Below are positions 32,767 through 53,132 of a stretch of 64,000 bases of DNA, piece by piece. The DNA lies in NCBI RefSeq assembly GCF_021172045.1, contig NZ_CP087164.1, forward strand, positions 2,604,001-2,668,000. Reading direction: 5' to 3'. The stretch comes from Capillimicrobium parvum (GTDB taxonomy: Bacteria > Actinomycetota > Thermoleophilia > Solirubrobacterales > Solirubrobacteraceae). The notes under the pieces are model-generated. The model saw only the letters and a program-made list of their open reading frames with translations. It was not told the origin of the DNA and did no database searches. A program made the translations under genes and the position numbers. Position 1 is the first letter of the stretch. Every line of letters starts with the position of its first letter.

Positions 32767-32821
32767 GCTGCCGCCGGGTCTCGCTGCGTGTCGGACCGGC
32801 ATGCGCAGGGCGAGCTTCTCC

Positions 32822-34693
32822 ATGCGCGAATCCCTTGCACATCAGCGCCCGGCGGCGGACTCCGGCGCCGCGGACCGCGTAGCCGTCGGCGGCCTCGCCG
32901 CCGAGGGCACGACGTCGGTGCTCGTCGCCACCGCGGCGGGTGACGACGGCGGTCCCGCCGCGCTGCTGGCCTGGGAGCAGACGACGCTGCTGGCTCGGCT
33001 CGTCGAGCAGATGGCCAGCCTCGGCGTGCGCGACGTGCGCGTGCTCACGCGCACCGCGTGGAGCCCGGCGGTGACCGCGGCGCTCCCGGCCGGCGGGCCC
33101 CGAACCCTCGTCCTGCCCAGCGCCGACGCCGCCGAGGACCTGCGCCACATCGCCGAGATCGCCCGCGAGCGCGCCGACGCCCCGCTCGTCCTGCTCTACG
33201 GCGACATCGTCACCCACCGCGAGGCGCTGGCCGGCGTGCTCGCCGACCCGCGGCTGGCGACCGCCATCCTCAGCACGGGCGCGCGCACCGGGCGGCCGTT
33301 CGCGACGCGCACGCGCTCGCGCCGCGGCCGCGTGACGAGCGCCGGCTCGGCCTACCACCACGTCCAGCGCCCGACGATGAGCTTCCTCGGCGTCCTCAAG
33401 GTCGGACCCGACGACCGGGGCCGCGCCGCCGGCCAGGCCGACGAGCTCGCCGCGATCCTCGCCGACCCGCCCGGCGTGTTCGCCGAGGAGATGCTCATCA
33501 AGGAGCGCCGCTGGCGCCACTCGCTGGCGCGCAGCGTGCTCGGCCACGCCGAGGAGCTGGACGCCGTGCCGGCCGGCGAGGTCCCCGCGGACGGCGAGGC
33601 TCCCGCCTGGCGGCCGGCGCCCGGCGAGCCGATCGGGCCCGAGGTCCTCGACGCCGTCGAGCTGCCCGCCGACGTGCGCGAGGAGCTGGCCCTGCGCGTG
33701 CAGGCCGCGCCGGAGGACTCCGTCTCGCTCGTGCTCGTCGGGCTCGTGCGCGGCGGGACCCACGTCGGCCACAGCTACCTGCGCTCGCTGTTCTGGGCGC
33801 GGCCGCTGTCGGCGCCGTCGATCGCCGAGGCCGAGGAGCGCATCGTCGGCTACGACGAGGACAAGGTCCTGCTCGACTCGGCGGTGAAGGCCAGCGACGG
33901 CTTCTTCACGACGTTCTTCGTCAGCCCGTACTCCCGCTACATCGCGCGCTGGACCGCGCGCCGCGGCCTGACGCCCAACCAGGTCACCGCCTTCTCGCTC
34001 GCGCTGGGCTTCCTCGCCGCCGCCGGCTTCGCCACGGGCGAGCGCTGGGGGCTGATCGCCGGCGCGATCCTGCTGCAGCTCGCGTTCACGTTCGACTGCG
34101 TCGACGGCCAGCTGGCCCGCTACAGCCGCCAGTTCTCCAAGCTGGGCGCGTGGCTGGACTCGATCTTCGACCGCACGAAGGAGTACGTCGTCTTCGCCGG
34201 GCTGGCGATCGGCGGGACGCGGATGGGGGAGTCCGTGTGGCTGCTGGCCGGGATCGCGCTGACCCTGCAGATCGCGCGCCACATGGGCGACTTCTCCTTC
34301 GGCACCAGCCAGCAGCTGCAGATCGGGGCGACCGAGCACGCGCCGCTGCACCGTGCCTGGGATGGGCCCAACCCGCCGGCGGTGCGCTGGCCGCCCGAGT
34401 CGGTCGTGGCGGCCGCGGCACCCGTCGCCGAGGTCGTCGAGGCGCCCGCGCCGCCGCTGCGCGTCCGGATGTCGAAGGGGCTGCTGTCGGTGTGGCACCG
34501 GGTCGACCGTCTCGGCGCGGCCCGCTGGCTGAAGAAGATCGTCGCGTTCCCCATCGGCGAGCGCTTCGCCGCGATCTCGCTCACGGCGGCGATCTGGAGC
34601 GCGCACACGACGTTCGTGGTGCTCATCGTCTGGGGCGGCTTCGCAGCCGTCTACACCCTGACCGGCCGCTTCCTGCGGTCGATCTCCCGGTGA
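32822..34693 (+). CDS. CDP-alcohol phosphotransferase with degenerate nucleotidyltransferase domain
   Basis: 623 residues. The first about 270 residues have a nucleotidyltransferase-like fold (TTLLARLVEQMASLGVRDV and LVLLYGDIVTHREAL) but lack the GxGxR signature, so catalysis is doubtful. The C-terminal membrane part carries the complete motif D-x2-DG-x2-AR-x8-G-x3-D-x3-D as DCVDGQLARYSRQFSKLG then AWLDSIFD. Architecture resembles bifunctional inositol-phosphate cytidylyltransferase/DIPP synthase. Start at 32822 is chosen for AGGGCGAG 7 bp upstream; ATG at 32801 is possible. It is the first of four genes ending with a second CDP-alcohol enzyme. Confidence 0.85.
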   Translation: MRESLAHQRPAADSGAADRVAVGGLAAEGTTSVLVATAAGDDGGPAALLAWEQTTLLARLVEQMASLGVRDVRVLTRTAWSPAVTAALPAGGPRTLVLPSADAAEDLRHIAEIARERADAPLVLLYGDIVTHREALAGVLADPRLATAILSTGARTGRPFATRTRSRRGRVTSAGSAYHHVQRPTMSFLGVLKVGPDDRGRAAGQADELAAILADPPGVFAEEMLIKERRWRHSLARSVLGHAEELDAVPAGEVPADGEAPAWRPAPGEPIGPEVLDAVELPADVREELALRVQAAPEDSVSLVLVGLVRGGTHVGHSYLRSLFWARPLSAPSIAEAEERIVGYDEDKVLLDSAVKASDGFFTTFFVSPYSRYIARWTARRGLTPNQVTAFSLALGFLAAAGFATGERWGLIAGAILLQLAFTFDCVDGQLARYSRQFSKLGAWLDSIFDRTKEYVVFAGLAIGGTRMGESVWLLAGIALTLQIARHMGDFSFGTSQQLQIGATEHAPLHRAWDGPNPPAVRWPPESVVAAAAPVAEVVEAPAPPLRVRMSKGLLSVWHRVDRLGAARWLKKIVAFPIGERFAAISLTAAIWSAHTTFVVLIVWGGFAAVYTLTGRFLRSISR

Positions 34694-34750
34694 CGTGCGG
34701 GCCCGCGGGTCCTCAGCCACCACCGTTCCGACCCGGAGGGAGGTGACTCG

Positions 34751-35368
34751 CTGAGCTCGCTCGAGACCTACCGCGACGACGGCCCCCTGGCCCGCACGCT
34801 CGGGCGCGTCGCCGGGCGCGCCGTCCCGCTGGCGCCGACGGCGCTCATCGCGCTCGGGGTCGCCGCGCTGCTGATCGTCATCGCGATCACCGGCGACGAC
34901 GCCGACCGGTGGGTCCCGGGCGCCCTGATCGCCTGGCTGATCGTCACGGCCGGCACCTCGAGCGGGCGCCCGCACACCGATCGCCTGCGCTGGGCGATCC
35001 CGTCGCTGCTGCGCATCGGCGAGTACGCGGCGGTGCTGTGGATGGCGGCGATCGCGGGCGAGCGCTCGCTGCCGGCCGCGTTCGCGCTGCTCGGCGTCGT
35101 CGCCTTCCGCCAGTACGACCTCGTCTACCGCCTGCGCTACCGCGGGACGGTGCCGCCGCAGTGGGTGAACCTCGTCACGCTCGGGTGGGACGGACGGCTC
35201 GTGCTCGTCTGGGTCCTGCTGATCGCCGGCGCGCTGCCCGCGGGCATGTACATCGCGGCCGGGCTCCTGGCCGTCGTGCTGGTCGGCGAGTCCGTCACCG
35301 GCTGGCGACACTTCGAACGGGCCCAACGGCCCATGCTCTACGAGGACGAGGAGGAAGAAGCCGCATGA
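34751..35368 (+). CDS. Integral membrane protein, DUF5941-like, CTG start
   Basis: 205 residues with four or five membrane segments, starting SSLETYRDDGPLARTLGR and ending QRPMLYEDEEEEAA. It is in the same frame as the CDP-alcohol enzyme upstream, separated only by that gene's stop and 57 bp. The sequence resembles a domain (DUF5941, from memory) often fused to the C-terminus of such enzymes. No ATG, GTG or TTG lies in frame before residue 95; the CTG at 34751 has a very strong GGAGGGAGGTG site 6-7 bp upstream and keeps the conserved N-terminus. Its stop overlaps the next ATG by 4 bp. Confidence 0.72.
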   Translation: MSSLETYRDDGPLARTLGRVAGRAVPLAPTALIALGVAALLIVIAITGDDADRWVPGALIAWLIVTAGTSSGRPHTDRLRWAIPSLLRIGEYAAVLWMAAIAGERSLPAAFALLGVVAFRQYDLVYRLRYRGTVPPQWVNLVTLGWDGRLVLVWVLLIAGALPAGMYIAAGLLAVVLVGESVTGWRHFERAQRPMLYEDEEEEAA

Positions 35369-36096
35369 TCGGCATGGTGCTCGCCGCGGGCTGGGGCAGT
35401 CGCCTGGCCCCGCTGACCGACGCGCTGCCCAAGACGCTGCTCGAGGTCGACGGCGACCGCACGATCCTGGACGTCGCCCTGGGCAACCTCAAGCACGTCG
35501 GGCTCGACCGCGCGGTGGTCGTGACCGGCTTCCAGCACGACGTGCTCGTCGAGCGCCGCGCCGCCCTGGAGCGCCGCCACGGCCTCGAGATCGAGCTGCT
35601 GTTCAACCCCAAGGCGCTCGAGTGGAACAACGCGTACTCGCTGTGGTGCGCGCGCGAGCACTTCGCCGAGGGCGTGCTGATGGCCAACGGCGACACCGTG
35701 CACCCGCCGTCGGTCGAGGAGACGCTGCTCGCCGCGCGCGGCGCCGGCGACGTCGTCATCGCCGTCGACCAGTCGCACGAGATGGGCGATGAGGAGATGA
35801 AGGTCCACGTCCGCGACGGGCTGCTGGACCGCATCAACAAGGCGCTCGACCCGGCCACCGCGGACGGCGAGTACATCGGCGTGACGCTCATCGAGCCGGC
35901 GGCCGCGCAGCCGCTGGCCGACGCCCTGCAGGCGACGTGGGAGCGCGACCCGTCGCTCTACTACGAGGACGGCTTCCAGGAGCTCGCCGACCGCGGCGGG
36001 CGCGTGGCGATCGCGCCGATCGGCGTGGTCGAGTGGGTGGAGGTCGACGACCATGCCGACCTCGCCCGGGCGCGGGAGGTCGCGTGCCGCTGCTAG
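35365..36096 (+). CDS. Sugar/polyol-phosphate nucleotidyltransferase
   Basis: 243 residues. Classic NTP-transferase: MVLAAGWGSRLAPLTDALPK (GxGxRLxPxT-x5-PK), LLFNPKALEWNNAYSLWCA, and LMANGDTVHPP as the metal-binding Asp region. The length and the FNP-x6-N-x2-SLW stretch are like inositol-1-phosphate or phosphocholine cytidylyltransferases rather than glucose enzymes. ATG overlaps the previous stop by 4 bp. In this operon it should make the CDP-activated alcohol used by the flanking CDP-alcohol phosphotransferases, perhaps from the product of the next gene. Confidence 0.85.
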   Translation: MIGMVLAAGWGSRLAPLTDALPKTLLEVDGDRTILDVALGNLKHVGLDRAVVVTGFQHDVLVERRAALERRHGLEIELLFNPKALEWNNAYSLWCAREHFAEGVLMANGDTVHPPSVEETLLAARGAGDVVIAVDQSHEMGDEEMKVHVRDGLLDRINKALDPATADGEYIGVTLIEPAAAQPLADALQATWERDPSLYYEDGFQELADRGGRVAIAPIGVVEWVEVDDHADLARAREVACRC

Positions 36097-37142
36097 CGCG
36101 CATGGTCGGGACGCCGCTGGCCATCGACATCGGACCGGGGGCGATCGAGGCGCTGGCGCCGCTGCTGGCCGACCGCCGCATCTCCAGCGGCGGGCACGTC
36201 GCGGTGGCCGTCGGGCCCGGACAGGGCGAGGCCATCGCCGCCGTCCTGCGCCCGCAGCTGGCCAACGCGGAGATCATCCCGGTGCAGGGCGGCTCGGTCG
36301 AGGCGGCGATGGACCTGTCGCGCGGCCTGCGCTCGGGCTTCTACGACGCGCTCGTGGGCATCGGCGGCGGGCGCACGATCGACGTGGCGAAGTACGCCGC
36401 GTCGCTCGCCGGCCTGCCGATGGTGGCGGTGGCGACGTCGCTCGCGCACGACGGCCTCGCGTCGCCCGTCGCGTCGCTGACCGAGGGCGGGCGCAAGATG
36501 TCCTTCGGGGTGCAGATGCCGATCGCGGTCGTCGTCGACCTCGACTACGTGCGCCGCAGCGCGCCGGAGATGCGCCGGTCGGGGATCGGCGACGCGGTCT
36601 CCAACCTCTCCGCGATCGACGACTGGCGGCTCGCCGAGCGCGAGCGCGGCGAGACCGTCGACGGCCTCGCGGTCACGTTCGCGCGCACCGGCGCGATGGC
36701 GATCATCGACCGCAGCGACTCCATCGACGACGACCGCTTCCTCTACGCGCTGGCCGACGCGCTCGTGCTCTCCGGCCTGGCCATGGCGGTCGCCGGATCG
36801 AGCCGGCCGTGCAGCGGCGCCGACCACGAGATCCTCCACGCGATCGACCACCTGTTCCCGGGCAGCGCGAACCACGGCGAGCTCGCCGGCATGGCCGCGC
36901 TGTTCACCTGCCATCTGCGCGACGACGCGGACACCGCCGCGCACCTCGACGCCTGCCTCGCGCACCACGGCCTGCCGCGGGTGCCCGCCGACGTTGGGCT
37001 CACTCCCGGGCAGTTCGCCGCGGCGGTGCACCACGCGCCGTCCACGCGCCCGGACCGCTACACGATCCTCGAGCACCTCGGGCTGGACGAGCGGGAGGTG
37101 AGGCGCCGTGTCGACGCGTACGTCGGCGCCGTCGATCGCTGA
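36084..37142 (+). CDS. sn-glycerol-1-phosphate dehydrogenase-like enzyme (EgsA/AraM type)
   Basis: 352 residues in the iron/zinc alcohol dehydrogenase-3-like superfamily. The cofactor region is DALVGIGGGRTIDVAKYAAS, followed by VATSLAHDGLASPVASL, diagnostic of the G1PDH/AraM branch. Metal ligands are in AVSNLSAIDDW (Asp) and in CSGADHEILHAIDHL with NHGE (His residues). G1PDH reduces dihydroxyacetone phosphate to glycerol-1-phosphate, the archaeal stereoisomer. GTG at 36084 has GGGAGG upstream and overlaps the nucleotidyltransferase by 13 bp. Arabinitol-1-phosphate or another polyol phosphate is an alternative product. Confidence 0.8.
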   Translation: MPLLARMVGTPLAIDIGPGAIEALAPLLADRRISSGGHVAVAVGPGQGEAIAAVLRPQLANAEIIPVQGGSVEAAMDLSRGLRSGFYDALVGIGGGRTIDVAKYAASLAGLPMVAVATSLAHDGLASPVASLTEGGRKMSFGVQMPIAVVVDLDYVRRSAPEMRRSGIGDAVSNLSAIDDWRLAERERGETVDGLAVTFARTGAMAIIDRSDSIDDDRFLYALADALVLSGLAMAVAGSSRPCSGADHEILHAIDHLFPGSANHGELAGMAALFTCHLRDDADTAAHLDACLAHHGLPRVPADVGLTPGQFAAAVHHAPSTRPDRYTILEHLGLDEREVRRRVDAYVGAVDR

Positions 37143-37896
37143 GCTGCGCGCGGTCACCCAGCCCCCCTCGATCTTCGAGCGCAACAGCGGCGAGCACTGG
37201 GCGGGGCGCCTGTACATGCGCCGCCTGTCGCCGTACCTGACGCGGCTGCTGCTGCGCACCCCGATCACGCCGAACGGCGTCACGTGGCTGATGATCCTGT
37301 CCGGCATCGCGGCGGCCGCCGCGCTGACGCTGCCCGGGATCTGGCCGGCCGCGCTCGCCGTCGTCCTGATCCAGCTGCAGCTCCTGCTCGACTGCTCCGA
37401 CGGCGAGCTGGCCCGGTGGACGGAGCGCAAGTCGCCGGCCGGGATCTACCTCGACCGGCTGGGCCACTACGTGACCGAGGCGCTGCTGCCGGTCGGGCTC
37501 GGCATCCGGGCCGACGGCGGCTGGGAGCACATCGGCGGCTGGACGACGCTCGGGCTCGTCGTGTCGGTGCTCGTGCTGCTCGTGAAGTCCGAGACCGTGC
37601 TCGTGACGATCGCGCGGGTGGAGGCCGGGCTGCCGCGCGCGCAGGACACGCGGGCGGTCGCGGCGCCGCGCGCGGCCGGGCTGGCGGCGGCGCGCAGCGC
37701 GCTGGGGCGGCTGCCGTTCTTCCGCGCGTTCGTGGCGATGGAGGCGACCCTGCTGGCGCTGGCCGCGGCGGTCGGCGACGAGATCGCGGGCGACCTGGAC
37801 GTCACGCGGGGGCTGCTGATCGCACTCGTGCCGATCGCAGCGGTCACCGCGGCCGGTCACCTGCTGGCGATCCTGACGTCGAGCCGGCTGCGGTGA
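37108..37896 (+). CDS. CDP-alcohol phosphotransferase family membrane protein (variant motif)
   Basis: 262 residues, GTG start with GGGAGG upstream. Six or so membrane segments. The motif reads DCSDGELARWTERKSPAG then IYLDRLGHYVTE: the first three Asp are kept, but the fourth, the proposed general base, is His. The change may mark a subfamily with a different acceptor. It overlaps the G1PDH gene by 35 bp and the next GT2 by 4 bp. With 32822-34693 it is one of two CDP-alcohol enzymes in the operon; one may initiate and the other polymerise or cap. Confidence 0.82.
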   Translation: MSTRTSAPSIAELRAVTQPPSIFERNSGEHWAGRLYMRRLSPYLTRLLLRTPITPNGVTWLMILSGIAAAAALTLPGIWPAALAVVLIQLQLLLDCSDGELARWTERKSPAGIYLDRLGHYVTEALLPVGLGIRADGGWEHIGGWTTLGLVVSVLVLLVKSETVLVTIARVEAGLPRAQDTRAVAAPRAAGLAAARSALGRLPFFRAFVAMEATLLALAAAVGDEIAGDLDVTRGLLIALVPIAAVTAAGHLLAILTSSRLR

Positions 37897-38804
37897 GCGG
37901 CGCGCCGCACCCCTCCACCCGCCGCGGCCCGGACGCCGTGGGGCCCGAGACCTTCGGCTGCGTCGTGCTCACGGGCGGCCGGCGGCCCGACGACCTGCGC
38001 CTCGCCCTCGCCACGCTGCTGGACCAGGCCAGCGTTGAGCTCGACGTCGTCGTGGTCGGCAACCCGTGGCAGCCGAGCGGCCTGCCGGCGGGCGTGCGCG
38101 GCGTGGGGCTGCCGGAGAACGTCGGCATCCCGGCGGGGCGCAACGCGGGCGTCGAGCACGTGGACGGACGCCTGCTGTTCTTCCTCGACGACGACGCGTC
38201 GCTGGCGGATGCGGACGGCCTCGCCCGCGTCGCCGCGAAGTTCGCCGCCGATCCGGCGCTCGGCGCCGTCCAACTGCGCGTGGAGTCACGCGACGACGGG
38301 CCGCCGCTGCGCAACTGGGTGCCGCGCCTGCGCGTCGGCGACCGGTCGCGCTCGGGCGACGTGGCCGCGCTGTGGGAGGGGGCGGTGGCGATCCGCCGCA
38401 GCGTGTTCGAGGAGGTCGGCGGCTGGCCGGGCGAGTTCCGCTTCGTTCACGAGGGCGTCGACCTGGCCTGGCGCGTGCTCGACGCCGGCTACCGCGTGCA
38501 CTATGCCGGCGACGTCGTCGCCCGCCACCCGTCGCACGTCGTCGGCCGTCACGGCTACTCCGCCTACTACGGCGCCCGCAACCGCGTGTGGATCGCCCGG
38601 CGCAACCTCCCGGCCCCGCTCGGGCTGCTGTTCGTCGCCACGTTCGCCGCGAGGACGCTGCCGACGCTCCTGCGCCGCCGCCACCTGCGCGCGGCGCTGC
38701 GCGGCTATCGCGACGGCCTGCGGCTCCCGTGCGGCCCGCGGCGGCCGCTGCGGGCCGCGACGCTGTGGCGCATGACCCGCAACGGCCGCCCGCCCGTGAT
38801 CTGA
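37893..38804 (+). CDS. Glycosyltransferase family 2
   Basis: 303 residues. GT-A fold: FGCVVLTGGRRPDDLRLAL, LPENVGIPAGRNAGVEHV, LLFFLDDDASLAD with the DXD motif, then GAVAIRRSVFEEVGGWPGEF and the acceptor-side FVHEGVDLAWRVLDAGYRVH. The C-terminus is basic with an amphipathic stretch (LLFVATFAARTLPTLLRRR), suggesting peripheral membrane binding. GTGA overlap with the upstream CDP-alcohol enzyme places it in the same operon. It resembles rhamnosyl/galactofuranosyl-type transferases. Confidence 0.87.
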   Translation: MSGAPHPSTRRGPDAVGPETFGCVVLTGGRRPDDLRLALATLLDQASVELDVVVVGNPWQPSGLPAGVRGVGLPENVGIPAGRNAGVEHVDGRLLFFLDDDASLADADGLARVAAKFAADPALGAVQLRVESRDDGPPLRNWVPRLRVGDRSRSGDVAALWEGAVAIRRSVFEEVGGWPGEFRFVHEGVDLAWRVLDAGYRVHYAGDVVARHPSHVVGRHGYSAYYGARNRVWIARRNLPAPLGLLFVATFAARTLPTLLRRRHLRAALRGYRDGLRLPCGPRRPLRAATLWRMTRNGRPPVI

Positions 38805-38835
38805 TGCGCCCGAGGACGCAATAGCCTGAGATCGG

Positions 38836-39729
38836 ATGTCGACCCAGACGGTCTCCGCGTCAGCCGACGACCCACTGCACCGCCAGTGGGAGGACGAGTT
38901 CGCGCCCGAGGTGCATGTCTACGAGCCCCACAAGGTCGGGCTCCCGCCGCTGCGCGCCTACGTGCACGAGCTCTGGCGCCGGCGCGAGTTCGCCATCGAG
39001 CTCGCGCGCACGAGGCTCGCCGCGCAGCACTACGGCACCGCGTTCGGGATGACGTGGCTCATCCTCAACCCGCTGCTGCTGGGGGTCGTCTACTTCCTGC
39101 TCGTCGACATCCTGCGCAGCGGCCACCACCCGAAGGGCTTCTTCGCCCACCTGCTCGGCGGGATCTTCGCCTACTACCTGTTCTCGGACTCCGTGCGTCC
39201 CGCGGTCAAGTCGGTGACGTCAGGCGGCCGGCTCATCCTCAACACCGCCTTCCCACGCACACTGCTGCCGCTGTCGGCCGTGTTGACGTCGGTCATGCGG
39301 TTCCTGCCGACGATGGGCGTCTACGTCATCGTCCACGTCGCCTCGGGCCTGTCGTTCGACGTGGAGATGCTGTGGGCGATCGTGCCGCTCCTGGAGATCC
39401 TCGTGTTCACGCTGGGGATCTGCATGCTCGTGGCCGCGCTGCAGGTCTACTTCCGCGACATGGCCAACTTCCTGCCGTACCTGCTGCGGATCTGGCTCTA
39501 CGCGTGCCCGGTCCTCTGGTACGCGGCCGAGGTGCCGCACGGCTACAAGTGGCTGCTCTACGCCAACCCGCTCGGCAGCATGCTGACCGCGTGGAGCGAG
39601 GCCCTCAACCAGGGCATCACGCCGGGCACGACGTGGCTCGTGCTCGGCGGGGCATGGGCCGTGGTCGCGTTCGTCGCCGGCGGCCTGTTCTTCGTCTCCC
39701 GGGAGCGTGAGTTCGCTGTCCGCCTCTGA
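38836..39729 (+). CDS. ABC-2 polysaccharide/teichoic acid export permease (TagG/RfbA type)
   Basis: 297 residues. About 60 cytosolic residues (RREFAIELARTRLAAQHYGT) precede six membrane helices. The TagG/Wzm pattern is TAFGMTWLILNPLLLGVVYF, KSVTSGGRLILNTAFPR, LLVAALQVYFRDMANFLPY and CPVLWYAAEVPHGYKW. It is followed with 23 bp overlap by its ATPase. It exports the lipid-linked polymer made by the upstream enzymes across the membrane. Spacing of 31 bp from the GT2 gene keeps it in the same run of genes. Confidence 0.9.
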   Translation: MSTQTVSASADDPLHRQWEDEFAPEVHVYEPHKVGLPPLRAYVHELWRRREFAIELARTRLAAQHYGTAFGMTWLILNPLLLGVVYFLLVDILRSGHHPKGFFAHLLGGIFAYYLFSDSVRPAVKSVTSGGRLILNTAFPRTLLPLSAVLTSVMRFLPTMGVYVIVHVASGLSFDVEMLWAIVPLLEILVFTLGICMLVAALQVYFRDMANFLPYLLRIWLYACPVLWYAAEVPHGYKWLLYANPLGSMLTAWSEALNQGITPGTTWLVLGGAWAVVAFVAGGLFFVSREREFAVRL

Positions 39730-40558
39730 GGCTCCGGTGCCCGCCCCCGCGGCGTCCGCGCGGGACGAGACCGAGCGGGCGGCCGAGGCCCCCGCCTCGA
39801 TCAAGGTCGAGAACGTCTCGATCACGTACCAGACGGCGCTCGCGCACCGCCAGACGCTCGTCGGCACGCTGTCACGCCTCCGCCGCCGCCGCAAGGTGAC
39901 CAAGGAGATCAAGGCGGTCCGCGACGTCTCCTTCGAGGTCCCCCGCGGCACCGTGCTCGGCATCGTCGGCGCCAACGGCGCCGGGAAGTCGACGCTCGTG
40001 CGGGCGATGGCGGGCATCCTGCCGCCGACGAACGGGCGCATCGAGGTCCACGGGCGCGTCAGCACGCTGCTCGCCCTCGGCGTGGGCTTCGACCGCAAGC
40101 TCACCGGCCGCCAGAACGTCGTGCTCGGCGGTCTCGCCGCGGGCCTGAGCCGCGAGCAGCTCGAGGACAAGTACGAGGAGATCGTCGAGTTCGCCGAGCT
40201 CGACGAGTTCATGGACATGCCGATGCGCACCTACTCGCAGGGCATGTACGGCCGCCTGGCGTTCTCCGTGGCGGTGAACATGGAGCCCGACATCCTGCTC
40301 ATCGACGAGGCGCTGTCGGTCGGCGACGCGCACTTCAAGCGCAAGTCGTTCGACAAGATGCGCGAGCTCTGCGACCAGGCGCACACGATCGTGCTCGTCA
40401 GCCACGCCCTGCGCTCGCTGCGCGAGCTCTCCGACGAGGTCGCGTGGCTGAACAAGGGCGAGCTCGTCGAGTACGGCCGGCCCGGGAAGGTGATCCGGGC
40501 CTACCAGCGCTACCTCAAGGTCGACGAGGACGACGAGGTCACGCAGGAAGACGTCTGA
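39707..40558 (+). CDS. ABC export ATPase (TagH/RfbE type)
   Basis: 283 residues, GTG start with GGGAG upstream. Walker A is GANGAGKSTL, Walker B is ILLIDEALSVGD, the signature YSQGMYGRLAFSVAV, and VSHALRSL the H-loop. The segment GRVSTLLALGVGFDRKLTGRQN is specific to polysaccharide/teichoic acid exporters. An N-terminal 40-residue extension is acidic and Ala-rich; there is no C-terminal sugar-recognition domain as in Wzt, arguing for TagH-like export without end-cap sensing. The stop overlaps the convergent GT-C gene by 20 bp. Confidence 0.9.
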   Translation: MSSLSASEAPVPAPAASARDETERAAEAPASIKVENVSITYQTALAHRQTLVGTLSRLRRRRKVTKEIKAVRDVSFEVPRGTVLGIVGANGAGKSTLVRAMAGILPPTNGRIEVHGRVSTLLALGVGFDRKLTGRQNVVLGGLAAGLSREQLEDKYEEIVEFAELDEFMDMPMRTYSQGMYGRLAFSVAVNMEPDILLIDEALSVGDAHFKRKSFDKMRELCDQAHTIVLVSHALRSLRELSDEVAWLNKGELVEYGRPGKVIRAYQRYLKVDEDDEVTQEDV

Positions 40559-44894: not shown

Positions 44895-45656
44895 TCAGGT
44901 CCGCGTCGCCACCAGCGCCAGCTTGCGCACGCGCCCCTCGTCCAGCCATCGGATCCAGAGGCGGTGGGCGGCGAGCAGCTCGTCCAGCGCCCGGCGGCCG
45001 ATCTGGGCGGCGATCTCCTCGGCGTGCTCGGCGAACGCGCTCGTCAGCGCCTGCGCCGTCGCGCGATGGGCGCGGCTGTGGTCCTCCTGCCATGTGACGG
45101 TGAGCCCCGCCCGCTCCAGGGATGCGGTCAGCTCGTCGAGCGGGGTGAGCCAGACCGTGTCGGCGTCGGGCATCGCCGCTCGCTCGGCTGCGGTCAGCGG
45201 CGGCCCCTCCTCGAGCGTGAAGGCGAACCGCCCGCCGGGCCGCAACGCCGGGAAGATCTCGCGGATCAGGGCGTCCTTGTCCTCGAAGGCGAGCATCGTC
45301 TCGAGCAGGAGCACAACGTCGAAGGGACCGGAGGGGAGCGGCGGAACGTGCGCGACCGCGAAATGGCACGGCAGATCGCCCGCGAGATCGCGGGCGACGG
45401 CGACGGCGCTCGCGCTGGCGTCCACGCCCAGGTAGGCGCAGCCCAGCTCTCGGGTGAGGAGCCGCCCGGGCCCCGCGGTGCCGCAGCACAGGTCGAGCAC
45501 GCCGACGCCGGGGCCGATGCCCGCCTGGGCGGCCAGGCCCCGGATCTCGCCGGCGGTCATGAAGCTCTCCTGCCCGACGTACTCGCCGGCGGCGTACGCG
45601 GACAGCCGCGCGCGATGCAGTGCGCGGTGAAACGGCGCGCGGTCGTCCTGCCTCAT
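44895..45656 (-). CDS. Class I SAM-dependent methyltransferase
   Basis: 253 residues. Opens RALHRARLSAYAAGEYVGQESFM, then motif I VLDLCCGTAGPGRLL, GVDASASAVAVARDLA, and FDVVLLLETMLAFEDKDALI with LRPGGRFAFTLEEG as post-motifs. It resembles UbiE/sarcosine-dimethylglycine methyltransferases (Methyltransf_11 or 25). ATG at 45656 is preferred because the longer frame runs into the divergent gene. It is divergent from the CDP-alcohol/sulfatase fusion, 83 bp away, suggesting shared regulation. Substrate unknown. Confidence 0.83.
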   Translation of the reverse strand: MRQDDRAPFHRALHRARLSAYAAGEYVGQESFMTAGEIRGLAAQAGIGPGVGVLDLCCGTAGPGRLLTRELGCAYLGVDASASAVAVARDLAGDLPCHFAVAHVPPLPSGPFDVVLLLETMLAFEDKDALIREIFPALRPGGRFAFTLEEGPPLTAAERAAMPDADTVWLTPLDELTASLERAGLTVTWQEDHSRAHRATAQALTSAFAEHAEEIAAQIGRRALDELLAAHRLWIRWLDEGRVRKLALVATRT

Positions 45657-45739
45657 CGCGCTGCCGGCCTCGACGCCATCGGCCCCGGATCCTGCCGGAA
45701 TCCGCCCCGGCTCTCTGCGGCGGCGCTCCGGGTCTGCCT

Positions 45740-48130
45740 GTGTTGATCCGTCCTCGCGCTCCCGACGCCCCGGAGGGCGCGCTGCGAGTGAGCTGGGCGG
45801 GCCCGGCAACCGGGCTGGCGGCCCAGGTGCTGCTCCTGGCCGTCGTGACGCAGGCGGCCGGGCTCGGCGCGGCCGGCTGGGTCGTGGGCCTCGTGAGCGC
45901 CGTGGTCATCGCGGCCGCCCTGGCGCGCGGGCTGGCGGGCGGCGCCGATGATCGACTGGGGCCGGCGTCGTGGGTGACGCTCGCCCGGGCCACGCTCGCC
46001 GTCGGCGTGGCCGCGCTGGCCGTGGACTCGCTGATCCGGGGCATCCCGGTGGCGCTGTTCGTGACGATCGCCGCCGTCGCGCTCTCGCTGGACCTGGTCG
46101 ACGGCCAGGTCGCACGGCGCACCGGGACGGAGTCCCGGCTCGGCGCGCGGTTCGACGGCGAGATCGACGCGTTCCTGATCCTCGCCCTCAGCGTCCATGT
46201 CGCCCCCACGGTCGGCGCCTGGGTCCTCGCGATCGGCTTCGCGCGATACCTGTTCCTCGCCGGCGAGTGGCTTCTGCCGTGGATGCGGGCCCCGTTGCCC
46301 GCGCGCCGGTGGCGCAAGATCGTCGCGGCGGCGCAGGGGATCGTGCTGACCGTCGCCGCCGCCGGCGTGCTGCCCCTGGGGCTGGTGCGGGCGCTCCTCG
46401 CCGCCGCGCTCGCCGCGCTCGCCGCGTCGATCGGGGAGTGCGTGTGGTGGCTCTGGCGCCGCCGGGACGTGCCGCGCGAGCGCACACGCGACGCCGTCGA
46501 CCATCCGCGCGAGCGCGGGCCGCTGCGCACGGGCATCGCCGCGGCGCTGACGGTCCTCGCGGCGCTCCTCGTCTGGGTCGCGCTCGTCGCGCCGGCCGAG
46601 CCGAGCCGCTTCGCGCTCGGCGCGTTCGTGCGGCTCCCGCTCGAGCTCCTCGTCGTCGTCGCCCTGGCCGTCCTGCTGCCCGCCGCGCCCCGCCGCGCGT
46701 TGGTGATCGCGGCGGGAGCCGTCCTGAGCGCGATCGTCGTCGTCAAGGTCCTCGACATCGGGTTCTTCACGGCCTTCAACCGGCCGTTCAGGCCCGTCGA
46801 CGACTCGGGCTACGTCGGGATCGGCATCGAGACGCTGGGCGACGCGATCGGCCGGGCGCAGGCGCACATCGTCGCCGTCGTCGTGGGCCTGCTCGTCGTC
46901 GTGCTCCTCGCCGTCCCGGTTCTGGCGCTGGCGCGTGTGACCCGGGTTGCGGCGGGACACCGCGCCTGGGCGCTGGGGGCGATGGCGGTGCTGGGGGTCG
47001 TCTGGGTCGGGCTGCGCGTGGCCGGCGCTCCGGTCGCCTCCTACAGCGCGGCGCAGCTCGCCGTCGGCGAGGTGCAGGCCGTGCAGGCGGGCCTGCACGA
47101 TCACGCGGTCCTCGCCCGCCTGATCGCCCGCGACCGCTTCCAGGCGACGCCCGGCGACCGGCTGCTGACCGGGCTGCGCGGCAAGGACGTCCTGCTCGTG
47201 TTCGTCGAGAGCTACGGCAGGGTCGCCGTCCACGGCTCGTCGTTCTCGCCCGGGGTCGACGCCGTGCTGCGCCGGGGCGATGCTCAGCTGCGCACGGCGG
47301 GCTTCTCCGCGCGCAGCGCCTTCCTGACCTCGCCGACGTTCGGCGGCCTCAGCTGGCTGGCGCACTCCACCCTGCAGTCCGGGCTGGAGATCGACGGCCA
47401 ACGGCGCTACGACCAGCTCGTCGGGAGCGACCGGCTCAGCCTCACGCGGGCGTTCAAGCGCGCCGGCTGGCGGACGATCGCCGACATGCCGCAGGATCAC
47501 CGGGACTGGCCGCAGGGCAGGACCTTCTACCACTACGACAAGGTCTACGACCGCCGCAACCTCGGCTATCGCGGCCCGGGGTTCGGCCTGCCGCCGATGC
47601 CCGACCAGTACACGATGCTGGCCCTGCAGCGATTCGAGCTCGCGAACCGCCACCGGCCCCCGGTCTTCGCCGAGGTCGACCTCACCTCGAGCCACACGCC
47701 CTGGACGCGCATCCCCCGCCTGATCCCCTGGGACCAGGTGGGCGACGGATCCATCTTCGGCCGCATCGCGCCGGCGGAGGCCACGACGGCCAGCCTCTTC
47801 GGCGACGCCGAGCGCGCGCGCGCCGCCTACGGCCATTCGATCGAGTACGCGCTGCGCATGCTCTTCTCGTTCGTCCAGCGCTACGGCACCGACGACACCG
47901 TGCTCGTCGTCCTGGGCGACCATCAGCCCTCGACCAAGGTCAGCGGCGACAGCGCCGGCCACGACGTCCCGGTCTCCATCATCGCTCGCGACCCGAAGGT
48001 CATGGCGCAGGTCGCCGGGTGGCGGTGGGAGGCGGGCATGCGGCCGAGCCCGCAGGCGCCCGTCTGGCCGATGCGCGCCCTGCGCGACCGCTTCCTCAGC
48101 GCGTTCGGCTCGTCGCCGGCGGGCGGCTGA
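45740..48130 (+). CDS. CDP-alcohol phosphotransferase fused to LtaS-like sulfatase domain
   Basis: 796 residues. The N-terminal membrane part (about 1-240) has the full CDP-alcohol motif from Asp118 to Asp143: DLVDGQVARRTGTESRLG then ARFDGEID. Four more membrane helices (about 265-425) lead to an extracellular alkaline-phosphatase-like domain from about residue 480: VLLVFVESYGR (metal Glu), FLTSPTFGGLSW (nucleophile Thr/Ser region), SSHTPW and VVLGDHQPSTK (metal Asp/His). The latter is typical of lipoteichoic-acid synthases and phosphoglycerol transferases. One polypeptide may therefore make a phospho-alcohol lipid and transfer its head group outside. GTG 45740 or GTG 45788 may start it. Confidence 0.82.
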   Translation: MLIRPRAPDAPEGALRVSWAGPATGLAAQVLLLAVVTQAAGLGAAGWVVGLVSAVVIAAALARGLAGGADDRLGPASWVTLARATLAVGVAALAVDSLIRGIPVALFVTIAAVALSLDLVDGQVARRTGTESRLGARFDGEIDAFLILALSVHVAPTVGAWVLAIGFARYLFLAGEWLLPWMRAPLPARRWRKIVAAAQGIVLTVAAAGVLPLGLVRALLAAALAALAASIGECVWWLWRRRDVPRERTRDAVDHPRERGPLRTGIAAALTVLAALLVWVALVAPAEPSRFALGAFVRLPLELLVVVALAVLLPAAPRRALVIAAGAVLSAIVVVKVLDIGFFTAFNRPFRPVDDSGYVGIGIETLGDAIGRAQAHIVAVVVGLLVVVLLAVPVLALARVTRVAAGHRAWALGAMAVLGVVWVGLRVAGAPVASYSAAQLAVGEVQAVQAGLHDHAVLARLIARDRFQATPGDRLLTGLRGKDVLLVFVESYGRVAVHGSSFSPGVDAVLRRGDAQLRTAGFSARSAFLTSPTFGGLSWLAHSTLQSGLEIDGQRRYDQLVGSDRLSLTRAFKRAGWRTIADMPQDHRDWPQGRTFYHYDKVYDRRNLGYRGPGFGLPPMPDQYTMLALQRFELANRHRPPVFAEVDLTSSHTPWTRIPRLIPWDQVGDGSIFGRIAPAEATTASLFGDAERARAAYGHSIEYALRMLFSFVQRYGTDDTVLVVLGDHQPSTKVSGDSAGHDVPVSIIARDPKVMAQVAGWRWEAGMRPSPQAPVWPMRALRDRFLSAFGSSPAGG

Positions 48131-48142
48131 GCGCACTGCCGG

Positions 48143-48832
48143 TCAGTCGTCACGGAAGCGCGGCGAGAGCGCGTAGCGCAGCAGCACCACGTCGCCGATC
48201 TGGTTGACCTCGGCCAGGGTCGCGCGCCGGTCGGGGTTCCACGGGAAGCGTCCGTCGGTCACGAAGCGCGGGGCGCTCGAGTCGCCGACGAAGCAGGGCG
48301 CCACGACGAGCTGCAGCTCGTCGACGAGGTCGTCGGCCAGGAACTGGGTGTGCACGACGCCGCCGCCTTCGACCATGAGCCGTTCCACGCCGCGGTCGGC
48401 GAGGTCCTCGGTCAGCCGGCGCATCCGCACGCGCGCGCCGCCGTCGACGATCGTCGCCACCGGTCCGAGGCGGGCCCGGGCGTCGGCCACCCGCGGGCTC
48501 GGCGTGTAGACGAGCTTCTCGGCCTCGCCGGTCGTGAAGAAGCTCGAGCGCGCGTCGAGGTCCGCCCGGCCGGTCACGGTGATCTTCATCGGGTCGGGCG
48601 CGAGCCCGAGGGCGGTGCGCGCGTCGCGACGGGCCGGGGAGCGCACGAGCAGCCGCGGGTCGTCGGTGCGCACGGTGACCGCCCCGACCATGATCGCGTC
48701 GCAGGAGGCGCGCACCGCGTCGACGCGGTCGAAGTCGGCCTCGTTGGACAGCGCCAGGCGCGGCCGGTGGTCGCCGAGATAGCCGTCGATCGACACGCTG
48801 CAGCTCAGCAGGGTGTACGGGCGCTCAGACAT
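48143..48832 (-). CDS. RibD C-terminal / dihydrofolate reductase-fold reductase
   Basis: 229 residues. SCSVSIDGYLGD at the start, then DAIMVGAVTVRTDDPRLLVR (nucleotide-binding, RibD-like), PMKITVTGRADLD, and LMVEGGGVVHTQFLADDLVDEL, the hallmark VEGG-x4 segment. No deaminase domain. Enzymes of this type reduce the ribosyl part of pyrimidine or pterin intermediates with NADPH. The ATG at 48832 overlaps the UPF0104 stop by 8 bp, and it is the last gene of a six-gene minus-strand operon, converging on the CDP-alcohol/sulfatase gene. Confidence 0.87.
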   Translation of the reverse strand: MSERPYTLLSCSVSIDGYLGDHRPRLALSNEADFDRVDAVRASCDAIMVGAVTVRTDDPRLLVRSPARRDARTALGLAPDPMKITVTGRADLDARSSFFTTGEAEKLVYTPSPRVADARARLGPVATIVDGGARVRMRRLTEDLADRGVERLMVEGGGVVHTQFLADDLVDELQLVVAPCFVGDSSAPRFVTDGRFPWNPDRRATLAEVNQIGDVVLLRYALSPRFRDD

Positions 48833-49844: not shown

Positions 49845-50662
49845 GGCACGACCAGCAGGTCGGCATGCCCGACGGTGACCGCCAGGTCCCCGGAGGCCGC
49901 CTGCACGAGGCGCCGATCCCGGTAGGGCCCGGCCTCGGCGGCCAGCGTGGGCTCCTGCTCGCAGCCGGCGGCGACCCACCCGCGCAGCCACTCTGCCGTG
50001 AGGTGGGCGTGGGCGGCGCCGAGGCGCCAGGGGCTCGAGCGGATCAGGACCCGGGCGCCCGTCGCCCGCAGCGCACGGACGGCGGCGGGTACGGCATCCG
50101 GGCCCAGCAGGCGGCCCGCCGTCGTCATACGGCGCTGGTGGGCGTTGAACGCGGCGCCGATGCGCCCGTCCAGCGGGTCTGCCGGCACCAGGACGACCCG
50201 CGCGACGACCGTCAGTGCCAGCAGGACGGGACAGCCGATCTCGATGCAGGCGCCGAGCATCCCGGCGAGCTCGCCCGTGGTCAGGATGTCGAGCAGCGCC
50301 GAGGCCACGATGAGCCGGGCGCCCTCGAGGTCGCCCGAGGTCAGCCGGGTGACGTCGGACAGGCGGGTCTCGACCATGACCGCGGCCCCGTCGAGGGCGT
50401 CGTCCGGCGGGTCGCCGGCGGCGAGCGCCAGCAGCTCGGGGTCGCGGTCGTGGATCACCCAGTGCTGCCGGCCGGGCAGCCGCGGCGCGAGCCACCGCCC
50501 CATCGCGCCGCTGCCACCGCCGAGGTCATGGATCTCGAGCGGGCCGGCCGCGCGAAGGTGCCGCCCGAGGCGCTCGGCCAGCTCGGCGCAGCGCGCCGCC
50601 GCGTCGGCGGGCTCCCGCAGGGCGAGCCAGTCGGGGCTGACCTGGGTGCCGTGCGCGATCAT
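49841..50662 (-). CDS. SAM-dependent methyltransferase-like protein
   Basis: 273 residues. EIHDLGGGSGAMGRWLAPRL is a clear motif I; WVIHDRDPELLALAAG follows as the acidic loop, then RLIVASALLDILTTGELAGM and CPVLLALTVVARVVLVPAD. The long middle with FNAHQRRMTTAGRLLGPDAV is typical of an actinobacterial group I cannot name further. ATG at 50662 overlaps the GT4 stop (ATGA) and its end overlaps the UPF0104 GTG, so it is mid-operon. It may methylate the glycosylated product; loss of catalytic function is also possible. Confidence 0.8.
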   Translation of the reverse strand: MIAHGTQVSPDWLALREPADAAARCAELAERLGRHLRAAGPLEIHDLGGGSGAMGRWLAPRLPGRQHWVIHDRDPELLALAAGDPPDDALDGAAVMVETRLSDVTRLTSGDLEGARLIVASALLDILTTGELAGMLGACIEIGCPVLLALTVVARVVLVPADPLDGRIGAAFNAHQRRMTTAGRLLGPDAVPAAVRALRATGARVLIRSSPWRLGAAHAHLTAEWLRGWVAAGCEQEPTLAAEAGPYRDRRLVQAASGDLAVTVGHADLLVVP

Positions 50663-51726
50663 CGCTGCGCTCCCGCGAGCAGCCCGGCGAGGACGGACGC
50701 CGTGACCGGCCACGGGCGCAGCGACGCGCGCCGCTCTCGGGCGGCCCGGCGCAGGCGCTCGCGCAGCCCGGCGTCGCGCAGCCAGGCCCGCAGCGCGGCG
50801 CCGAGCGCCGCCGGGTCGCCGGGCGCGACGAGCATCCCCGGCCGCGTTCCGTCACGCCCCTCGCCGAGGGCCTCCGCCACCCCGCCGACGTCGGTGGCCA
50901 GGACCGGCACGCCGCGCGCCAGGGCCTCGGTGACGACCATGCCGTACGTCTCGGCGTGCGATGCGAGCACGAGCAGGTCCGCCGAGGCGTAGCCGCGGTG
51001 CAGTTCCGGCCCGGTGCGCGGTCCGGGGAAGCGCACGCGCCCGTCCAGCCCGAGGTCCCGCGCGCGGCGGCGCACGCCGCCGGCGAACACGGGGTCGCGG
51101 TCGACGCTGCCCAGGCATGTGCAATGCCACGACAGCTCCGTAACGGTGGCGAGCGCCTCGAGCAGCACGTCGTGCCCCTTGTCGGGGATCACCGCCGCGA
51201 CGCAGAGCAGCGCATCGCCGGCCGGGCTTCCCGGGGCCAGGGCGGCGGTGTCCACGCCGGGCTCGGCCACGTGCACCCGGCCGGGCGGCAGCGCATACAG
51301 CTCGTCCAGCCGGCGACGCGCCCACCCGCTGGTCGTGACGACCGCGGTGGCCGCCTCCAGGACGTCGCGCTCGCGCGCCCGGACCGCGCCGGACTCGCCG
51401 GCAGGCGGGCGGTGTCCCAGCGGCATGTGCACCAGGGCGACCTGGCGAAGCCGGTGCGCCTCGGGCACGAGGGCCTCCGGTGCGGCCGACGCGACCAGCC
51501 CGTCGAGCAGCACCACGGCGCCGTCCGGGATCCGGCGGACGGCGCGCCTGAGGGCCGCATGCCCCGTCGCGTCGGCCCGCGGCCACGCGCCGGGCACGCC
51601 GTGCTCGTGAACCTCCCAGCCGCGCTCGGCGAGCCCGCGGCAGATACGGCGGTCGTACACGTTGCCGCCGCTCGGCCGGGCCGGATCGTCGATGCCCTCG
51701 GGGACGACCACGTGCACCCTGGTCAC
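50659..51726 (-). CDS. Glycosyltransferase family 4
   Basis: 355 residues, GTG start. GT-B fold: [20 protein letters not shown], acceptor half with [20 protein letters not shown], then [20 protein letters not shown] and the donor motif [20 protein letters not shown] with the E-x7-E pair (HAE...TEAL). [11 protein letters not shown] follows. GTGA overlap with the PTPS-like gene upstream and ATGA overlap with the methyltransferase downstream. It most likely glycosylates the product of the surrounding enzymes. Confidence 0.87.
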
Positions 51727-52124: not shown

Positions 52125-53132
52125 CTACTCCTCGTCGTAGGTGATCGTGTGGCAGAGCGCCGGGAGATCCCCCGCCGCGAGCCGCGCCATGACGGCGGGA
52201 AGCTCGTCGAAGCGCGACTCGCCCGTGATGAGCACGTCGAAGGCGGGGTCGCGCAGCAGGTCGAGCGCGAGCGCCAGCCGGTCGGCGGTCGTCCGGCGCG
52301 CGCTCCGGATGGGGGACACCGTCCCGACCTGGCTGGCGCGCAGCCCGAGCCGGCGAGCGTGGAAGGCGCCGCCCAGCGAGAGCCGCACCTCGGTATCGCC
52401 GTACCAGCTGAGGTCGAGCACCGTGGCCTCGGACGCGAGCAGCTCGAGCGAGCGCTGCAGCCCGGCGGACGTCGCGCTGGTGTGAACGACCAGGTCGCAG
52501 CCGCCGGGCGCGTCCTCCGGCAACGCGAAGCGGGCGCCGAGCACGGCCGCGACCTCGGCCCGGGACGCGTCGACGTCGACGAGCGTCACCTCGAGCGCCG
52601 GGAACCGCGCGAGCAGGCGGGCGACGCAGCAGCCGACCATCCCGGCGCCGACGACGGCCACGCGGTCTCCGACCAGCGGGGCGGCGTCCCACAGGGCGTT
52701 GACGGCGGTCTCGACGGTGCCTGCGAGCACCGCGCGTGCCGCCGGCACGTCGTCGGGGATGACGGACACCGCACCGGCCGGCACGACGTAGGCCGTCTGG
52801 TGCGGATAGAGGCAGAAGACCTCGCGCCCGCACAGCTCCGGGGGTCCGTGTTCGACCGTGCCGACGTTGAGATAGCCGTACTTCACCGGGCCCGGGAAGT
52901 CGCCCTCCTGGAACGGCGCCCGCATCGTGGCGTACTGGCCCGGCGGCACCCGGCCCCGGTAGACCAGCGTCTCGGTGCCACGGCTCACCGCTGTCCGCAG
53001 CGTGCGGACCACCACGTCGCCCCGGCCCGGCCGGGCCGGTGCGACCGGCCGGATCTCCCCATGCTCGGGCGCGCGCAGCCAGAACGCATGGGCGTTGTCG
53101 AGCACGTCGTATGCCTCGGCTTGCTGCGGCAT
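52125..53132 (-). CDS. Zinc-type alcohol dehydrogenase-like protein (MDR superfamily)
   Basis: 335 residues. N-terminal GroES-like part has TLRTAVSRGTETLVYRGRVP, KYGYLNVGTVE and REVFCLYPHQTAYVVPAGAV; the Rossmann motif is VAVVGAGMVGCCVARLLARF with DVDASRA. The usual structural zinc Cys cluster is absent and the catalytic-zinc ligands are not obvious; it resembles bacteriochlorophyllide-dehydrogenase or threonine-dehydrogenase-like proteins (from memory). It heads the six-gene operon; ATG at 53132 is 137 bp from the divergent sulfotransferase start. It probably oxidises a sugar or pterin hydroxyl. Confidence 0.83.
   Translation of the reverse strand: MPQQAEAYDVLDNAHAFWLRAPEHGEIRPVAPARPGRGDVVVRTLRTAVSRGTETLVYRGRVPPGQYATMRAPFQEGDFPGPVKYGYLNVGTVEHGPPELCGREVFCLYPHQTAYVVPAGAVSVIPDDVPAARAVLAGTVETAVNALWDAAPLVGDRVAVVGAGMVGCCVARLLARFPALEVTLVDVDASRAEVAAVLGARFALPEDAPGGCDLVVHTSATSAGLQRSLELLASEATVLDLSWYGDTEVRLSLGGAFHARRLGLRASQVGTVSPIRSARRTTADRLALALDLLRDPAFDVLITGESRFDELPAVMARLAAGDLPALCHTITYDEE

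What the first reader, a model, noticed from the sequence alone, without database searches (positions are those of the whole stretch)
45740..48130. One protein joins CDP-alcohol phosphotransferase and LtaS-like transferase/hydrolase
A cytosol-facing lipid head-group synthase motif and an extracellular alkaline-phosphatase-fold domain occur in one 796-residue chain. It could synthesise a phospho-alcohol lipid and then transfer or trim its head group on the other side of the membrane.
Basis: partly seen in the sequence, partly recalled or inferred. Interest (0 to 1): 0.72.

Follow-up and report, generated by a model that had tools for sequence, protein, structure and literature searches.

The report
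Two-sided membrane lipid head-group enzyme
One bacterial gene joins an enzyme that builds phospholipid heads inside the membrane to one that probably moves those heads onto something outside; relatives make the two parts as separate neighbouring genes, so the parts almost certainly work in one pathway whose product is not yet known.

Summary
Window 45740-48130 (+) is one uninterrupted gene (GC3 0.96) joining a CDP-alcohol phosphatidyltransferase half (PF01066, complete D-x2-DG-x2-AR-x8-G-x3-D-x3-D motif) to five transmembrane helices and an LtaS/LtaP-type extracellular domain. The catalytic Thr, Glu, Asp and His positions are intact and invariant in 13 aligned proteins. The fusion is conserved in 14 loci: scattered Solirubrobacterales/Thermoleophilia, Nocardioides, and one other actinobacterium. 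Some have no start codon in the linker, so a single chain is required there. In alphaproteobacteria and one actinobacterial genus the halves are separate genes, usually adjacent, and trees of the two halves agree. The fusion therefore marks two linked steps. Nearly all copies lie in a recurring cluster: zinc-type dehydrogenase, 6-carboxytetrahydropterin-synthase homologue (S. coelicolor SCO6650 family), GT4 glycosyltransferase, methyltransferases, flippase-like protein, RibD-C reductase and often a GTP cyclohydrolase II. Most likely the protein makes a phospho-alcohol lipid on the cytosolic face and transfers its head group to an extracytoplasmic (glyco)lipid or glycan. Head group, acceptor, and transfer versus hydrolysis remain unproven. 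No paper describing this fusion was found. The parts are known kinds; the join, and its link to a pterin-type cluster, are the news.

The parts
45740..48130 (+). fused CDP-alcohol phosphatidyltransferase / LtaS-LtaP-type gene, 796 aa (or 780 aa from GTG 45788)
45800..46462 (+). N-terminal half, CDP-alcohol phosphatidyltransferase, 8 predicted TM helices (first two absent in Nocardioides)
   Evidence: PF01066; profile comparison with the genome's own PgsA-like protein E 7e-7; topology
46091..46168 (+). CDP-alcohol phosphotransferase motif DLVDGQVAR-x8-GARFDGEID (residues 118-143)
   Evidence: sequence; motif residues invariant in A1 and A4
46463..46519 (+). basic cytosolic linker (residues 242-260)
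   Evidence: in frame in 14 fused loci; positive charge
46520..47029 (+). five predicted TM helices of the LtaS-like half
   Evidence: helices in the structure model
47147..48127 (+). extracellular alkaline-phosphatase-superfamily domain; E490, T533, H652, D727, H728 (codons at 47207, 47336, 47693, 47918, 47921)
44895..45656 (-). class I SAM methyltransferase (253 aa), conserved neighbour in the order
48143..48832 (-). RibD C-terminal-type reductase
   Evidence: PF01872
48825..49844 (-). LPG_synthase_TM flippase-like membrane protein
   Evidence: PF03706
49841..50662 (-). 273-aa protein, no Pfam match; annotated class I SAM methyltransferase in relatives
50659..51726 (-). GT4 glycosyltransferase
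   Evidence: PF00534
51723..52121 (-). 6-pyruvoyl/6-carboxytetrahydropterin synthase homologue (SCO6650 family)
   Evidence: PF01242; PDB 3d7j E 3.8e-57
52125..53132 (-). zinc-type (MDR) alcohol dehydrogenase homologue
   Evidence: weak Pfam/NCBIfam matches; annotated so in relatives

Best explanation
A two-site membrane enzyme. On the cytosolic face the N-terminal half joins a CDP-activated lipid (probably CDP-diacylglycerol) to a phosphorylated alcohol. The resulting lipid reaches the outer leaflet, possibly helped by the neighbouring flippase-like protein. There the C-terminal LtaS/LtaP-type domain attacks its phosphodiester with Thr533, forms a phospho-alcohol-enzyme intermediate and passes the head group to an extracytoplasmic glycolipid or glycan, perhaps one made by the neighbouring GT4. 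Shown by computation: one chain, intact residues, topology, Rosetta-stone link, conserved cluster. Inferred: both reactions, the lipid donor, flipping, transfer rather than hydrolysis, and the acceptor.
For: Both motifs are complete, and their residues are invariant in the 13 aligned fused proteins. The C-half profile hits LtaP 4uop, with T533 on the catalytic Thr, E490 on ESF, H652 on SSH and D727/H728 on GDH, in the same order as LtaS Glu263-Thr307-His422-Asp481-His482 (PMC4192460). Topology follows the positive-inside rule with 8+5 helices, putting the C-domain outside. Fourteen loci keep the fusion in frame, and L020, L028 and L029 have no plausible start in the linker. Separate genes occur in D. 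shibae, Agrobacterium and Paracoccus; in G539 the two ORFs overlap as ATGTCTGA. The half-trees have matching order. Flippase-like and GT4 genes travel with both fused and split forms. The OPG glucosyltransferase gene mdoH neighbours the D. shibae and Methylosinus copies, and in E. coli OPGs receive phosphoglycerol from phospholipids (PMC3818809 abstract). R149 and a near-invariant K173 (A4 numbering) align near Arg/Lys of the PgsA-like protein, which suggests a phosphorylated acceptor.
Against: No biochemistry. The N-half fits no named CDP-AP subfamily (pgsA 22.9 bits against a cut-off of 109), so its substrate is unknown. Streptomyces clusters have the CDP-AP gene but no linked sulfatase gene, so the outer step is not always tied to the pathway. 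Two standalone Streptomyces homologues have Ile/Val at the Thr position. The structure model has low confidence (pLDDT 63) and fold comparison was closed.
Confidence: 0.55

Rival explanations
1. The outer domain is a hydrolase (phosphatase or phosphodiesterase) that trims the lipid made by the inner half, for example removing a terminal phosphate or releasing the head group.
For: The alkaline-phosphatase superfamily contains many hydrolases; the best Pfam match is the general Sulfatase family. The LtaS second glycerolphosphate-site residues (Ser486, Asn488, His489 after GDH; PMC4192460) are not present in the conserved GDHQPxxxVxG.
Against: The only confident solved relative is a transferase, LtaP. 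The neighbours include glycosyltransferase and flippase-like genes, as in glycolipid/glycan decoration.
Confidence: 0.22
2. The two halves act on unrelated substrates and are fused only for co-expression or localisation.
For: Streptomyces keeps the CDP-AP gene in the cluster without the sulfatase gene, and has sulfatase homologues elsewhere.
Against: Linkage of the two halves persists in distant lineages in three arrangements: fused, overlapping, and nearby separate genes; tree order agrees.
Confidence: 0.12
3. The inner half uses a CDP-polyol or CDP-amino-alcohol with diacylglycerol (cholinephosphotransferase-like) instead of CDP-DAG with a polyol phosphate.
For: The closest solved sequences to the N-half profile include CPT1/CEPT1, all weak (E 5e-4 to 5e-3).
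Against: Bacterial-type serine synthases score equally weakly, and the conserved Arg/Lys pattern aligns near that of the PgsA-like protein.
Confidence: 0.11

Closest known systems
CDP-alcohol phosphatidyltransferases (PF01066; PgsA, PssA, PIP synthase, CPT1/CEPT1)
   Same: complete catalytic motif, six-helix core, Pfam score above cut-off
   Different: no named subfamily reaches its cut-off; extra N-terminal helices; fused to an LtaS-like half
Lipoteichoic acid primase LtaP / synthase LtaS (4uop; PMC4192460)
   Same: five TM helices plus extracellular domain; Thr nucleophile and Glu/Asp/His/His in the same order
   Different: E only 3.6e-7; lacks the LtaS second glycerolphosphate-site residues; fused to its presumed lipid-donor synthase
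Osmoregulated periplasmic glucan phosphoglycerol transferase OpgB (compared from memory)
   Same: same superfamily and the reaction type proposed here; mdoH lies beside some copies
   Different: uses bulk phosphatidylglycerol and is not fused to a lipid synthase
Streptomyces SCO6650 locus (6-carboxytetrahydropterin synthase homologue, PDB 3d7j)
   Same: the PTPS neighbour belongs to this family; Streptomyces clusters hold much of the same gene set
   Different: the CDP-AP stands alone there with no sulfatase in the cluster; pathway product unknown as far as I could find

Membership tests
CDP-alcohol phosphatidyltransferase family (PF01066) | motif D-x2-D-G-x2-A-R-x8-G-x3-D-x3-D | tested here: met
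   residues 118-143; invariant
CDP-alcohol phosphatidyltransferase family (PF01066) | profile score above curated cut-off | tested here: met
   41 bits against 22
CDP-alcohol phosphatidyltransferase family (PF01066) | CMP-releasing transfer activity | not testable with these tools
   needs an enzyme assay
PgsA (phosphatidylglycerophosphate synthase equivalog TIGR00560) | score above the equivalog cut-off | tested here: not met
   22.9 against 109.1 bits
LtaS/LtaP-type enzymes of the alkaline-phosphatase superfamily | ordered Glu, Thr, His, Asp-His catalytic residues | tested here: met
   E490, T533, H652, D727-H728
LtaS/LtaP-type enzymes of the alkaline-phosphatase superfamily | five TM helices then an extracellular domain | tested here: met
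   hydropathy and charge prediction only
LtaS/LtaP-type enzymes of the alkaline-phosphatase superfamily | PF00884 above cut-off | tested here: inconclusive
   21.2 against 25 bits for this protein; 25 of 34 relatives match at E below 0.1, best 3e-9
LtaS (polyglycerolphosphate polymerase proper) | second GroP-site residues Ser486, Asn488, His489 after GDH | tested here: not met
   GDHQPSTKVSG instead
LtaS/LtaP-type enzymes of the alkaline-phosphatase superfamily | alkaline-phosphatase fold | tested here: inconclusive

The most novel reading that the evidence does not exclude
The polyol phosphate used by the inner half is the product of the neighbouring GTP cyclohydrolase II / RibD-C / 6-carboxytetrahydropterin-synthase genes. 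The protein would then make, and display outside the cell, a lipid or glycan carrying a GTP-derived (ribityl-pyrimidine or pterin-like) head group.
Probability: 0.12. Interest if true: 0.85.

Novelty: new variant of a known kind. Interest (0 to 1): 0.5.

Why it matters
The fusion ties together two membrane steps on opposite faces in a recurring gene cluster found in actinobacteria, alphaproteobacteria and at least one gammaproteobacterium, whose product I could not find described. It gives a direct experimental handle: make a T533A or CDP-AP motif mutant and look for the missing lipid or glycan. It would also be an unusual case where a lipid-donor synthase and the extracytoplasmic transferase that consumes its product are one chain.

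Tried and rejected
Antisense ORF 45653-48136 (827 aa open): rejected, because GC is highest at its codon position 1 (0.95, against 0.76 at position 3), the mirror image of the coding + frame. Two separately translated proteins in the window: rejected for the family because some fused members have no plausible linker start. An internal GTG at codon 244 exists in the window itself, so an extra short product is not formally excluded. First-pass PDB search with the single sequence found only weak CDP-AP hits; the LtaP match needed the profile. No phage homologue of the C-half. Papers: ten searches found no description of the fusion or cluster; subscription papers are largely not held. Phylum search by alignment failed and was replaced by a protein search.

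Full report
The gene. The ORF at window 45740-48130 (+) encodes 796 residues from GTG. GC by codon position is 0.76/0.53/0.96 in that frame, so it is coding and the long antisense ORF is a shadow. A GTG at 45788 with GGAGGG about 11 bases before it is a likely alternative start. Family similarity begins near residue 19.

Two halves. Pfam finds PF01066 at residues 76-222 (41 bits) and a below-threshold PF00884 at 557-734 (21.2 bits). The CDP-alcohol motif DLVDGQVAR-x8-GARFDGEID is complete. A profile of 27 first-half homologues aligns with the genome's own PgsA-like protein (E 7e-7), but no named subfamily reaches its cut-off, so the substrate is open. A profile of 34 second-half homologues has one significant solved match, lipoteichoic acid primase 4uop (E 3.6e-7). 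T533 falls on the catalytic Thr, and E490, H652, D727 and H728 fall on the conserved ESF, SSH and GDH residues. That is the order reported for LtaS in PMC4192460. These residues are invariant in the fused proteins. The LtaS second glycerolphosphate-site residues are absent, so it should not be called a polyglycerolphosphate polymerase.

Topology. Family-averaged hydropathy gives 8 plus 5 helices. The basic loops lie on the predicted inside (linker 8.2 K+R, loop 395-414 4.6 K+R), which puts the last domain outside.

One chain, and a Rosetta stone. Fourteen loci (window, L020-L023, L025-L032, L081) hold both halves in one frame without a stop, with linkers of variable length; L020, L028 and L029 have no plausible start codon between the halves. 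Sources: Solirubrobacterales/Thermoleophilia, Nocardioides and one further actinobacterium. Eleven loci hold separate genes (L053-L055, L057, L082-L088): plasmids of Dinoroseobacter, Agrobacterium and Paracoccus, one actinobacterial genus and G539. Most are adjacent; in Agrobacterium the flippase-like gene lies between them. In G539 the ORFs overlap as ATGTCTGA. One further fused relative, L024, is broken by a frameshift next to a G run in a single-contig assembly, perhaps a sequencing error. Trees of both halves give the same order: proteobacterial outgroup, Streptomyces, the split genus, then one clade of all fused proteins plus G539. This fits one fusion and one later split.

Setting. Around almost every copy lie an MDR dehydrogenase, a PTPS homologue, GT4, a methyltransferase, an LPG_synthase_TM protein, RibD-C and often GTP cyclohydrolase II; an acyltransferase or further methyltransferases are sometimes present. 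The window's PTPS is of the SCO6650 family (3d7j, E 3.8e-57). In 151 genomes of the order the fusion and this PTPS each occur in 10, 8 of them shared (p 3.6e-10); the four discordant genomes are 72-84% complete. The p value ignores shared ancestry. The window's genome has no dedicated GTP cyclohydrolase II next to the cluster, only a canonical copy and a degenerate one elsewhere. Streptomyces clusters keep the CDP-AP gene without a sulfatase gene, and the annotated one also holds a creatininase. Related clusters occur in Rhizobiaceae, Methylosinus, and the gammaproteobacterium Thiodictyon, which has the CDP-AP gene. Dinoroseobacter and Paracoccus copies keep the membrane genes and GT4 without the pterin-type genes nearby. 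Some copies border mdoH.

Mechanism. Most likely: cytosolic synthesis of a phospho-alcohol lipid, movement to the outer leaflet, and Thr-mediated transfer of the head group to an outer (glyco)lipid or glycan. Sequence, topology and linkage are computed here; both reactions, flipping and acceptor are inferred. Hydrolysis instead of transfer is the main rival. That the alcohol is a GTP-derived ribityl-pyrimidine or pterin is an attractive but thin idea: it rests on neighbourhood and on recalled chemistry. A 2006 paper title on new function in S. coelicolor GTP cyclohydrolase II proteins was seen only as a citation, and I did not read it.

Verdict. A real, conserved fusion of two known kinds of enzyme. 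I found no paper describing it, but most subscription papers were not searchable and fused proteins may already be annotated in databases.

Noticed in passing
window 32801-40558: A second CDP-alcohol-phosphotransferase-rich cluster: a 630-aa NTP_transf_3/CDP-AP protein, a nucleotidyltransferase, an iron-containing (Fe-ADH_2) dehydrogenase, another CDP-AP protein, a GT2 and an ABC-2-type exporter. It looks like a polyol-phosphate glycan pathway; the first protein resembles the cytidylyltransferase-CDP-AP architecture known to me from memory.
   Followed up: partly
L024 9140-9200 (G145): The orthologous fusion gene is frameshifted next to a GGGGG run at about residue 165; a sequencing error or a recent break.
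   Followed up: partly
G000:C1:3798421-3798774 (L071): A second GTP cyclohydrolase II match with an internal TGA, besides the canonical gene, in the window's own genome.
   Followed up: no
L058, L059 (Streptomyces-like sulfatase-only homologues): The catalytic Thr position reads Ile or Val (SPIAGAGS, SPVTGAGS) in standalone homologues, which suggests divergent or inactive copies.
   Followed up: no
L053 9871-16980 (pDSHI05); L090 8079-12460 (pOB3b1): Osmoregulated periplasmic glucan genes (mdoH, with a glucan biosynthesis gene in D. shibae) border the split or partial cluster, a hint at a glucan acceptor.
   Followed up: partly
L089 14645-16138 (Streptomyces fungicidicus plasmid p1): A creatininase-family gene sits beside GTP cyclohydrolase II in the Streptomyces cluster; from memory, archaeal FAPy deformylases belong to the creatininase family.
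   Followed up: no
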